NCBI GenBank assembly: GCA_016191465.1
Contig: JACPOP010000001.1
Coordinates: 124,001-188,000 of the forward strand
Length of the DNA: 64,000 nt
DNA from: Chloroflexota bacterium
GTDB lineage: Bacteria > Chloroflexota > UBA6077 > CF-72
Direction of reading: 5' to 3'
Part shown: piece by piece, positions 24,853-51,286 of the stretch
Layout of the letters: every line of letters starts with the position of its first letter
How positions within the stretch are numbered: position 1 is the stretch's first letter
The notes under the pieces: model-generated
Told to the model about the DNA's origin: nothing
What the model saw: the letters and a program-made list of their open reading frames with translations, nothing else
Databases searched by the model: none
Position numbers and translations under genes: made by a program

Positions 24853-24967
24853 GCGTCCGTCGGGAGCGCTCCTATTCGGCTAAGCACGTCGAGCTTCTGT
24901 CGTGTTCCGTAAGGCTGAGCACGTCCTGTGAACGCGGCCCAGACGCGCAACGGGCGTCCGCACGCGC

Positions 24968-25585
24968 TCAGGCGGGAACCGCGTCACTGGCACTTGCCAC
25001 GGGGCGGGAAATGGCCTTCGAAGGACCCGTATCGACCATGATCTTGCCACCCTGGATCGTCACGGGGAAGCGGTCCATCGGGCGCGGCGCGGGACCCTGC
25101 AGGATCTGGCCATACCGGTTGTAGATCGACCCGTGGCAGGGGCAGTTGAACCGTCCCGAGGAGGCAAATGGTTTGTCGCCCTCTCCAGGGGGCCCTCCCA
25201 TGACCACGTCGGCTTCCTTCCAGGGCACCGTACACCCCAGGTGCGGGCACTTCCACCACAGGGCCATAAATCCTTCCGGCACGCGGGTGAGATAGAACTT
25301 GCCCTCGCGGATGACCTTGACGTCGCCGACCTTGAAATCGGCCACGGCTCCGGCTGTCACCACACCGCCGAACGCGCCGACCTTCTGTGGCCAGAAAAAC
25401 CCAAGCGCGAAGCCCACCCCCCACTGGCCGAGCAACGCCAGGATCGCGCCCCAGCCCACCCATCGGAACGCCAGGCGGCGGCGGACCTTACGCTGCTGTT
25501 CTTGTTCAACCTCCTGGCGCTCGCCAAGCTCCGCCACCTTCTCGGGCGGGACGAAGAGCCCTAGCTCGCGCGACATCTGTGCCAT
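24968..25585 (-). CDS. Rieske iron-sulfur protein of the cytochrome bc/b6f-type complex
   Basis: The 205-residue protein has one membrane helix (about 42-64) and a C-terminal Rieske fold. Its two ligand boxes are KCPHLGCTVPW (Cys113, His115, disulfide Cys118) and CPCHGSIYNRYGQ (Cys148, Cys150 disulfide, His151). The about 30-residue spacing between the boxes includes an extra glycine-rich loop (GGPPGEGDKPF). It accepts electrons from quinol at the outer side and passes them to cytochrome c. The N-terminus is charged and coiled-coil-like, facing the cytoplasm. Third gene of the bc operon, 69 bases after the subunit IV-like gene. Confidence 0.95.
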   Translation of the reverse strand: MAQMSRELGLFVPPEKVAELGERQEVEQEQQRKVRRRLAFRWVGWGAILALLGQWGVGFALGFFWPQKVGAFGGVVTAGAVADFKVGDVKVIREGKFYLTRVPEGFMALWWKCPHLGCTVPWKEADVVMGGPPGEGDKPFASSGRFNCPCHGSIYNRYGQILQGPAPRPMDRFPVTIQGGKIMVDTGPSKAISRPVASASDAVPA

Positions 25586-48700: not shown

Positions 48701-49669
48701 TTGAACCACGGATGTGGCAGTGTGGCCGCGAGCCAGGGGGACTACCCCGGGGTATCTTCGAGTGGCCTGGGTGGAGGAGCAACGAACGAGCCCCTGACTC
48801 CCGAGGTGGTGGCCGCCCTCGTTCCGGACCGCCCGGCCGAAGCCCATAAGTACCGCTTCGGGCGAGTGCTCGCGCTGGCCGGCTCAGAAGCGTTCCCTGG
48901 GGCCGCGCTCCTGTGCGTCCGAGCCGCTGCCCGGTGCGGCGCCGGTGTTGTCACGCTGGCAAGCCACCCGACCGTCCGGTCCGTCGTGGCCGTGGCCGCT
49001 CCGGAGATCACCCATCTGAGCCTGGATCCAGAGGGCGCTCCGATCGGTCCAGGCCTGTGGGAGCGGCTTGATGGAGCATCGGCCGTCCTGGTTGGACCGG
49101 GCCTGGGACGGACGCAGCCAACACGGGACCTCGTCAGAGCCGCCGTCCGACGCTGTACCGGGCGAGGCATTCCGCTGGTCGTGGATGCCGACGGGCTCGT
49201 CGCGCTGGCGGAGGACCAGGACCTGCTCCAAGCGCTGGGCCCCACGACCATCGTGACACCGCACGCCGCCGAGTGGCAGCGGTTACGGGGCGGACGGGGG
49301 CTGGCAGCGGATCAACCGCTCTGGAGCCAGGCCGCCGATGACGCCCGGACATGGGGTGCCACCCTGATCGCGAAAGGGGCGCGCTCCACGGTGGCCGAGC
49401 CCGGCGGCAGGACTGCCACGTGGCCGCACCCAAACCCGGCGCTCGCCACGGGAGGAACGGGGGACGTGCTGGCTGGAATCTGCGCCGGGCTCCTTGCCCA
49501 GGGCCTCTCCGCATGGGACGCCGCGCGGCTCGCGGTCGTCGTCCAGGCGCTCGCGGCCGAGCGGGTCCTAGCCCAGCGACGCTGGCGGACCCTGCTGGCA
49601 AGCGATCTCTGGGACGAGATCCCGGCGGTCCTTCACTCGCTCGCCGCCGCGCGCACCAGTGCCAGTTAG
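48701..49669 (+). CDS. nnrD: ADP-dependent NAD(P)HX dehydratase
   Basis: The enzyme repairs hydrated NAD(P)H. The protein (up to 322 residues) has the YjeF C-terminal kinase-like fold: KYRFGRVLALAGSEAFPGAA, RCGAGVVTLASHPTVRS, VLVGPGLGRTQPTRDLV, VVDADGLVAL, VTPHAAEWQRL and LATGGTGDVLAGICAGLLAQ. The NnrE epimerase domain, often fused at the N-terminus, is missing. The start is uncertain: the frame opens at TTG 48701, whereas homology starts near PLTPEVVAALVPDRP. A GGAGGAG sequence at about 48775 sits before an ACG codon, so initiation may be non-standard or downstream of TTG/GTG codons. Confidence 0.88.
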   Translation: MNHGCGSVAASQGDYPGVSSSGLGGGATNEPLTPEVVAALVPDRPAEAHKYRFGRVLALAGSEAFPGAALLCVRAAARCGAGVVTLASHPTVRSVVAVAAPEITHLSLDPEGAPIGPGLWERLDGASAVLVGPGLGRTQPTRDLVRAAVRRCTGRGIPLVVDADGLVALAEDQDLLQALGPTTIVTPHAAEWQRLRGGRGLAADQPLWSQAADDARTWGATLIAKGARSTVAEPGGRTATWPHPNPALATGGTGDVLAGICAGLLAQGLSAWDAARLAVVVQALAAERVLAQRRWRTLLASDLWDEIPAVLHSLAAARTSAS

Positions 49670-49731
49670 CCTGCTCAGCAAGTGCACACACATGTGGCAT
49701 GTTTCTACGGAACTGAATGCACTTGCTTTAG

Positions 49732-49844
49732 ATAACTACTCACCTATCGTGTCCGGACTCATGATTCAGACCCTTGCAGCCTCGGCGTCTGAACTGGAAA
49801 TGTGCCATTCCGGCCGGCGCCCGTGTGGATAGGTGAGTAGTTAC
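49732..49844. mobile_element. 113 bp transposon-like remnant with 16 bp inverted repeats and 8 bp target duplication
   Basis: TAACTACTCACCTATC (49733-49748) and its perfect inverse GATAGGTGAGTAGTTA (49828-49843) bound a 113 bp unit. The octamer TGCTTTAG flanks it on both sides (49724-49731 and 49845-49852), a target-site duplication. Eight-base duplications with ends of the GTAACT type suggest an internally deleted or non-autonomous derivative of an IS66-like element, though the family call is inference. Confidence 0.75.
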
Positions 49845-49865
49845 TGCTTTAGCATCTTTGAAGAT

Positions 49866-49882
49866 TAAGCACGAAGTGCTTA
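49866..49882. terminator. Hairpin at the end of the M20 peptidase gene
   Basis: TAAGCAC (49866-49872) and GTGCTTA (49876-49882) pair over a three-base loop. The stem includes the peptidase stop codon (minus strand). It may be a weak terminator. Confidence 0.35.
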
Positions 49883-51286
49883 CAGCGTCCGGGCCAGGTC
49901 CTCCCAGAGGTGGGCCACGCTTCGCATGCCACCCGCAAAATTCTCGAGGTGGAACCGCTCGTTGGGGGCGTGCGCGTGCTCCTCGTCCAGGCCCACACCG
50001 AGCAGCACGGTCGGCACCCCGAGCACGTCCTGGAAGGTGGCCACCACCGGAATCGAGCCGCCCGACCGGATGAACGTGGCGTGCTGGCCGGGGAATCCGC
50101 GCTCCAGCGCGCGCAGCCCGGATTGGATGGCCGGGTGCTCGATCGGCGTGAGTGAGGGACGTCCGCTGTGGATGACAGTCACCTCGACATCCACGGTGGG
50201 GGGAGCCGTGCGCAGCAGGTGGTCCCGAACCAGCGCTGCCACCCCACCAGGGTCCTGGTCCGGCACCAGCCGGCACGAGAGCTTGGCGTGCGCTTCGGCG
50301 GCGATCACCGTCTTGGCGCCCTCGCCCTGGAAACCGCCCCAGATGCCATTGATTTCCAGGGTGGGCCGCGCCCAGACGCGTTCCAGGGTGCTGAAGCCGG
50401 CTTCGCCCCGCAGTGGGCGATTGGCTGGCAACGCGGCCTGCGTACGAAACAGGCCTTCGTCGAACGGCAGGCTGGACCACGCCTTCCGCTCGTCGTCCCG
50501 CAGCGCCCTGACCCGGTCGTAGAACCCGGGCACCGTCACCCGATCGTCACCGTCCTTCAGCGCCACGAGCATCTCGCACAGCACCTGGATCGGATTTGCC
50601 ACGGCACCGCCGAAGGTGCCGGAGTGCAGGTCTACCGCGGAGCCGCGTACGTCCACCTGGAGATACGTGATGCCACGCAGGCCGTAGGTGATGCTGGGCA
50701 CGCCCTTCGCAAACATGGACGTGTCAGAAATCACCGCCACGTCTGCCTGGAGAAGCGGGACGTGATCGGCGATGAAGTGGTCCAGGTGCTCGCTGCCGAT
50801 CTCCTCCTCGCCTTCAAGCAGGAACTTCAGGTTCATCGGCAGGGACCCACCATCGCGCAGGTACGCCTCGACCACCTTCAGGTGCATGAAAAGCTGCCCT
50901 TTGTCGTCGACAGCCCCGCGCGCAAAGATGCTGCCGTCACGCACCACGGGCTCGAAGGGAGGCCGCTCCCACTCGTCCAGCGGGTCCACCGGCTGCACGT
51001 CGTAATGTCCGTACACCAGTGCGGTCGGCGCGCCTGGCGCGTGCAGCCAATCGCCGTAGACGACCGGGTTTCCCTCGGTGGGCATGACCGCGACCTGTTC
51101 GAGGCCGATGGCCCGCATGTGCTCGGCGAGCCACGCCGCGCAGCGGTCAACGTCGCCGCGGTGCTGGCTCAGGGCGCTGACGGACGGGATCCGAAGGAGC
51201 TCCTTGAGCGTTTCCACGATCACCTCGTGATCCTGGTCGAGGCGCGCGGCGACCTCGGCCGCCGAGCGCATGGTCGGTATCGTCAC
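49880..51286 (-). CDS. M20 family metallopeptidase (dipeptidase)
   Basis: The 468-residue protein has the di-zinc M20 motifs: LVYGHYDVQPVDPLDEW (first ligand His with catalytic Asp, near 91-107), RGAVDDKGQLFMH (bridging Asp), and LEGEEEIGSEH (catalytic Glu pair). Later, AHAKLSCRLVPDQDP and a lid domain (about 200-320) are typical of the CNDP-like dipeptidase group. It likely cleaves dipeptides in the cytosol. Its stop lies just beside the transposon-like remnant, and the hairpin overlaps the stop. The sigma factor gene lies 44 bases upstream on the same strand. Confidence 0.92.
   Translation of the reverse strand: MTIPTMRSAAEVAARLDQDHEVIVETLKELLRIPSVSALSQHRGDVDRCAAWLAEHMRAIGLEQVAVMPTEGNPVVYGDWLHAPGAPTALVYGHYDVQPVDPLDEWERPPFEPVVRDGSIFARGAVDDKGQLFMHLKVVEAYLRDGGSLPMNLKFLLEGEEEIGSEHLDHFIADHVPLLQADVAVISDTSMFAKGVPSITYGLRGITYLQVDVRGSAVDLHSGTFGGAVANPIQVLCEMLVALKDGDDRVTVPGFYDRVRALRDDERKAWSSLPFDEGLFRTQAALPANRPLRGEAGFSTLERVWARPTLEINGIWGGFQGEGAKTVIAAEAHAKLSCRLVPDQDPGGVAALVRDHLLRTAPPTVDVEVTVIHSGRPSLTPIEHPAIQSGLRALERGFPGQHATFIRSGGSIPVVATFQDVLGVPTVLLGVGLDEEHAHAPNERFHLENFAGGMRSVAHLWEDLARTL

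What the first reader, a model, noticed from the sequence alone, without database searches (positions are those of the whole stretch)
49724..49852. 113 bp element with perfect 16 bp terminal repeats and 8 bp target duplication
TAACTACTCACCTATC and its inverse bound the element, and TGCTTTAG flanks both ends. The size excludes a transposase, so it is a non-autonomous (MITE-like) or internally deleted insertion. The 8 bp duplication and ends suggest an IS66-like family. It sits between nnrD and the M20 peptidase gene and may have brought or removed a promoter or terminator.
Basis: partly seen in the sequence, partly recalled or inferred. Interest (0 to 1): 0.6.

Follow-up and report, generated by a model that had tools for sequence, protein, structure and literature searches.

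The report
Transposase-less IS66-type insertion inside hairpin repeat
A 113-base piece of DNA without any gene, carrying the end signature of the IS66 (ISBst12-group) jumping genes, has jumped into one copy of a 92-base hairpin repeat that this bacterium carries about 45 times; the insertion is real but of an ordinary kind, and the repeat it landed in is the less expected part.

Summary
Window 49732-49844 is a 113 bp element with 16 bp perfect terminal inverted repeats (17 bp if the mismatched outermost base is counted), flanked by an exact 8 bp duplication, TGCTTTAG. The insertion is now shown independently. The two flanks joined together form one copy of a ~92 bp two-hairpin intergenic repeat (here called HR92). 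HR92 has 45 covariance-model matches in this genome, two of which are the two halves at this site; other copies run uninterrupted through the junction, so they are paralogous empty sites. The IS66 guess is supported and narrowed to the ISBst12 (single-gene) group: in the same phylum, 1.5-1.7 kb elements with a PF03050 transposase end in GTAACTAYTCA and make exact 8 bp duplications, and gene-less elements of 90-420 bp with these ends occur in other genomes. No exact parent or second copy was found in the 78%-complete genome, but it holds a decayed ISBst12-group transposase (56-75% identical to an intact IS of a same-family genome). The promoter idea is not supported: both genes converge on the site. 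New member of a known kind; HR92, absent from 60 relatives and from Rfam, is the more interesting part.

The parts
49724..49731 (.). left copy of 8 bp target duplication TGCTTTAG
49732..49844 (.). 113 bp non-autonomous ISBst12-group (IS66 family) element
   Evidence: ends compared
49732..49748 (+). left terminal inverted repeat ATAACTACTCACCTATC (tip base differs from canonical GTAA)
49828..49844 (-). right terminal inverted repeat, reads GTAACTACTCACCTATC on the minus strand
49845..49852 (.). right copy of 8 bp target duplication TGCTTTAG
49671..49731 (+). left part of the interrupted HR92 hairpin repeat (5' arm and most of hairpin 1)
49853..49884 (+). right part of the interrupted HR92 repeat, with hairpin 2 AAGCACGAAGTGCTT at 49867-49881
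48701..49669 (+). nnrD-type NAD(P)H-hydrate dehydratase (Carb_kinase PF01256); 3' end faces the element
49880..51286 (-). M20 peptidase (PF01546/PF07687); 3' end faces the element, its TAA stop (49880-49882) lies inside the HR92 end

Best explanation
The element is a non-autonomous relative of ISBst12-group IS66-family insertion sequences. It has only the two transposase-recognised ends and no gene. A DDE transposase of that group, supplied in trans, cut or copied it at the GTAACTACTCA ends and inserted it with an 8 bp staggered cut at an AT-richer octamer (TGCTTTAG). That octamer lay in the 3' arm of hairpin 1 of one copy of the HR92 repeat, between the 3' ends of nnrD and an M20 peptidase gene. 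Shown: ends, duplication, empty paralogous sites, kinship of the ends with ISBst12-group elements that carry a transposase, and a decayed transposase of the group in the same genome. Inferred: trans-mobilisation, the identity of the transposase used, and that the element is now immobile (the transposase found is decayed, and one tip has changed from GTAA to ATAA). The insertion is probably near-neutral, because neither coding sequence is interrupted and no promoter lies there.
For: Exact 8 bp duplication and 16/17 bp TIRs. The joined flanks match other places in the same genome continuously through the junction at 73-86% identity and align with 15 other places there. A covariance model of that repeat gives 45 matches in the own genome, two of them the two halves at this site. 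Genomes of the same phylum hold 1.5-1.7 kb elements with PF03050 transposase, GTAACTAYTCA ends and exact 8 bp duplications: L186, L187, L189, L190, L191, L196, L205. In a same-family genome (G003), a single 470 aa transposase ORF fills a 1491 bp element ending GTAACTACTCAG / GTAACTGCTCAG. The own genome holds a broken copy of that transposase (three blocks of 56, 65 and 75% identity) with a degraded end GTAAGAGTTCAGAC beside GTAACTACTCAGAC. Short elements with the same ends and exact 8 bp duplications occur in Colwellia, Altiarchaeales, Zipacnadia, Chloroflexi G576 and G135; in 35 elements, with and without a transposase, the duplications are 71% AT against 53% for their loci. Published ISDge4, ISBst12 group: TIRs GTGACTACTCAGCA / GTAACTGCTCAGCA, 8 bp duplication, one 449 aa transposase gene (PMC12898284).
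Against: No transposase-bearing element with exactly the GTAACTACTCACCTATC ends was found; the agreement covers the first 11 bases. No second copy of the 113 bp element was found in the own genome or in 100 relatives, so multiplication as a MITE family is not shown. No orthologous empty site could be found, because nnrD and the M20 gene are not neighbours in the relatives examined. The genome is only 78% complete.
Confidence: 0.92

Rival explanations
1. A refinement rather than a contradiction: an internally deleted remnant of one particular full ISBst12-group element (a solo deletion derivative), not a separately evolved MITE.
For: Single copy in the genome; a decayed ISBst12-group transposase is present on another contig.
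Against: The interior matches nothing at useful score in 100 relatives, and the only intact same-family IS has different sequence behind its ends.
Confidence: 0.4
2. Insertion by a transposase of another family with 8 bp duplications that happens to share the end sequence.
For: Several transposase families make 8 bp duplications (general knowledge).
Against: All the transposase-bearing elements with GTAACTAYTCA ends examined carry a PF03050 (IS66) transposase, and the ISBst12-group ISDge4 has the same ends. Those elements were retrieved through PF03050, and no search was made with other transposase families, so this is not exhaustive.
Confidence: 0.04
3. Not a transposon but a structured RNA or terminator, with the direct repeat a coincidence.
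For: The strand folds strongly, z = -4.2 on the + and -6.1 on the - strand.
Against: The fold follows from the long inverted repeats; no Rfam match; no terminator-like site; the empty paralogous sites show insertion.
Confidence: 0.02

Closest known systems
ISBst12 group of the IS66 family (e.g. ISDge4 of Deinococcus geothermalis)
   Same: GTRACTRCTCA ends and 8 bp target duplication; one tip in ISDge4 is also altered (GTGA).
   Different: The element here has no transposase gene and is 113 bp instead of about 1.5 kb.
Transposase-less elements with GTAACTACTCA ends in Colwellia aromaticivorans (169-172 bp), Chloroflexi G576 (140 bp), Altiarchaeales A3 and others
   Same: Same terminal 11 bases, 90-420 bp length, exact 8 bp duplications.
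   Different: Those in Colwellia, G576 and some others are multi-copy within a genome; interiors are unrelated; this one is single-copy in the available assembly.
ERIC / REP type intergenic palindromic repeats (for the HR92 host repeat)
   Same: Dispersed, mostly intergenic, palindromic with compensatory changes, many copies in one genome.
   Different: Different sequence, 92 bp with two hairpins; REPs are described as 20-40 bp (PMC3733652 abstract). ERIC is compared from memory only.

Membership tests
IS66 family, ISBst12 group (as non-autonomous member) | 8 bp target-site duplication | tested here: met
   TGCTTTAG on both sides, exact
IS66 family, ISBst12 group (as non-autonomous member) | Terminal inverted repeats beginning GTAA(C) | tested here: met
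   Right tip GTAACTACTCACC; left tip has A for G at the outermost base
IS66 family, ISBst12 group (as non-autonomous member) | End sequence shared with elements carrying a PF03050 transposase | tested here: met
   GTAACTAYTCA ends with exact 8 bp duplications around PF03050 hits in L186, L187, L189, L190, L191, L196, L205; GTAACTACTCAG end around a single transposase ORF in L201
IS66 family, ISBst12 group (as non-autonomous member) | Carries its own single DDE transposase gene | tested here: not met
   113 bp is too short to encode it; hence 'non-autonomous relative', not a complete IS
MITE | Short, gene-less, TIRs and target duplication | tested here: met
MITE | Multiple dispersed copies in the genome | tested here: not met
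   One copy in a 78%-complete assembly; missing contigs could hold others
MITE | Mobilised in trans by a related transposase | not testable with these tools
   A decayed ISBst12-group transposase is present in the assembly, and one divergent IS66-domain ORF without matching ends; mobility needs an experiment
ERIC/REP-like intergenic repeat (HR92) | Many dispersed, mostly intergenic copies | tested here: met
   45 matches in the own genome; 6 of 29 midpoints inside strong ORFs against 78% of random positions
ERIC/REP-like intergenic repeat (HR92) | Conserved hairpin supported by compensatory changes | tested here: met
   12 of 17 pairs with changes on both sides, 0 of 500 shuffles as high (alignment fitted to the structure); 8 pairs, 13 of 500 on the unfitted alignment. 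RNAalifold on the fitted alignment predicted no pairs of its own.

The most novel reading that the evidence does not exclude
HR92 is a lineage-specific 92 bp two-hairpin repeat that has spread to about 45 mostly intergenic places in this genome and often sits flush against gene 3' ends. In at least six copies, M20 included, it supplies the stop codon of the converging gene. It would be a functional 3'-end processing or termination element, or a mobile palindromic element of a new family, into which an ISBst12-type element has inserted.
Probability: 0.25. Interest if true: 0.5.

Novelty: new member of a known kind. Interest (0 to 1): 0.3.

Why it matters
It adds a clean insertion, with its empty sites, to the little-documented set of transposase-less IS66/ISBst12-type elements. 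The full-text searches here found no paper on non-autonomous IS66-family elements, although elements with these ends appear in several phyla. It also exposes a lineage-specific structured repeat whose uninterrupted copies act as natural empty sites.

Tried and rejected
Orthologous empty site in relatives: M20 orthologues of up to 63% identity were found, but nnrD is not beside them, so the test could not be made that way. A parent with the exact 17 bp ends in 400 genomes of the phylum: none; two other genomes carried one-mismatch ends, of which G135 has two 152 bp elements of the same kind. Exact-end search of viral contigs: only isolated 16-mers, not examined further for a partner end. Plasmid search: only chance matches. 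The Altiarchaeales 1338 bp pair was tested as an autonomous parent and rejected: its only large ORF is a PIN-domain protein. Rfam for the element and for HR92: no meaningful match. Promoter/terminator scan: nothing. Target duplications around HR92 copies: none above chance. The fixed-gap search for paired 11 bp ends of 92-122 bp found none in 400 genomes; it cannot find the window element itself, because its left tip is ATAA.

Full report
Observation. TGCTTTAG at 49724-49731 and 49845-49852 flanks a 113 bp element (49732-49844) whose ends are 16 bp perfect inverted repeats. The real TIR is therefore 17 bp with one mismatch at the tip: the right end reads GTAACTACTCACCTATC, the left ATAACTACTCACCTATC. 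No ORF fits a transposase. The pair occurs once in the assembly, which is 2.15 Mb and 78% complete.

Insertion shown by empty sites. Relatives gave no orthologous comparison, because nnrD and the M20 peptidase gene are not adjacent in them. The flanks joined without the element and one duplication gave a better test. They match other places in the same genome continuously across the junction at 73-86% identity, and 15 other places align with them (two or three of these only partly). The site is one copy of a dispersed ~92 bp repeat (HR92), and the other copies lack the insert. A covariance model from 14 copies finds 45 matches in this genome, two of which are the two halves at this site, and none in 60 relatives, three of the same family among them (stricter filters were used and only the 70 best candidates per genome were scored, so copies can be missed). 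This is direct evidence that 113 bp plus an 8 bp duplication were added to a pre-existing sequence.

Family. Elements carrying a PF03050 (IS66) transposase in genomes of the same phylum have termini GTAACTAYTCA, lengths of 1.5-1.7 kb and exact 8 bp duplications. In G003, of the same family as the window genome, a single 470 aa transposase ORF fills a 1491 bp element with ends GTAACTACTCAG / GTAACTGCTCAG, although its flanks show no duplication. One-gene IS66 elements form the ISBst12 group. Published ISDge4 of that group has TIRs GTGACTACTCAGCA and GTAACTGCTCAGCA, one 449 aa transposase gene and an 8 bp duplication (PMC12898284). The window genome itself has a broken copy of the G003 transposase on contig 11: three blocks of 56, 65 and 75% identity, frameshifted, lacking the N-terminus and residues about 330-411, followed by a degraded end GTAAGAGTTCAGAC. 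This makes an ISBst12-group source in the lineage likely, though not the exact parent.

Relatives of the element. Gene-less elements with the same ends and exact 8 bp duplications were found in Colwellia aromaticivorans (169-172 bp, many copies), Altiarchaeales A3 (95-152 bp), a Zipacnadia MAG (157-333 bp), Chloroflexi G576 (140 bp, tens of paired ends) and G135 (152 bp, two copies, one with a 7/8 duplication). Over 35 elements, with and without a transposase, the duplicated octamers are 71% AT against 53% for their loci. TGCTTTAG (62% AT in a 32% AT window) fits that preference.

Consequence. nnrD (+) and the M20 gene (-) converge on the site, so a promoter delivered or removed here would drive neither gene. 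None was found, and no terminator-like site either. The insertion separates the lower stem of HR92 hairpin 1, leaves its upper stem (the duplication restores TGCT) and leaves hairpin 2 intact. The expected effect is small; this is inference.

HR92. The repeat has a long hairpin (arms of the type TGCTCAGCACG ... CGTGCTGAGCA) and a short one (AAGCACGAAGTGCTT). Compensatory changes support both: 8 pairs with changes on both sides on the unfitted alignment, 13 of 500 shuffles as high, and 12 of 17 on the larger alignment fitted to the model, 0 of 500. RNAalifold predicted no pairs of its own on that gappy alignment. Rfam has no such family. Copies avoid coding sequence (6 of 29 midpoints in strong ORFs against 78% of random positions) and rarely lie between divergent genes (2 of 20) (ORFs were chosen by a simple GC-position score). 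In at least five of those copies plus M20, the converging gene stops exactly in the TTA of the repeat's end (gap of -4; 49880-49882). No flanking duplications are visible, so whether HR92 is itself mobile is open.

Verdict. A real, transposase-less ISBst12-group (IS66 family) insertion, single-copy in this assembly, nested in a lineage-specific hairpin repeat. It is a new member of a known kind and of modest interest; the host repeat deserves its own look.

Noticed in passing
window 49671-49731 + 49853-49884; other copies in L253-L282: HR92: ~92 bp two-hairpin intergenic repeat, 45 covariance-model matches in this genome, none in 60 relatives, no Rfam match.
   Followed up: partly
window 24879-24974 (minus strand): A second, divergent HR92 copy in the window (26.6 bits).
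   Followed up: no
window 49880-49882; L257, L262, L265, L266, L272: The stop codon TAA of the gene converging on HR92 is provided by the repeat's conserved end (CTTAG) in at least six copies.
   Followed up: partly
L275 / L281 (G000 contig 9, 58553-58672): Two HR92 matches on opposite strands overlap and form a near-perfect palindrome (GTGCTCAGCCCGTGCCCACAGATCCG...), suggesting selection or a mechanism that keeps the hairpin.
   Followed up: no
L077:6876-8558 (G000 contig 8, about 7 kb beyond the window end): A 560 aa ORF with a divergent IS66 transposase domain (PF03050, 43 bits), without recognisable GTAACTACTCA ends nearby.
   Followed up: partly
L122:392-1729 (Altiarchaeales A3): 1338 bp element with GTAACTACTCAC ends and a 7/8 matching duplication that carries a PIN-domain protein instead of a transposase: a non-autonomous ISBst12-type element with a passenger gene.
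   Followed up: partly
G403 (Chloroflexi bacterium G576): About 33 occurrences per strand of GTAACTACTCA, many as 140 bp pairs: a high-copy MITE family in a genome where no PF03050 transposase was detected.
   Followed up: partly
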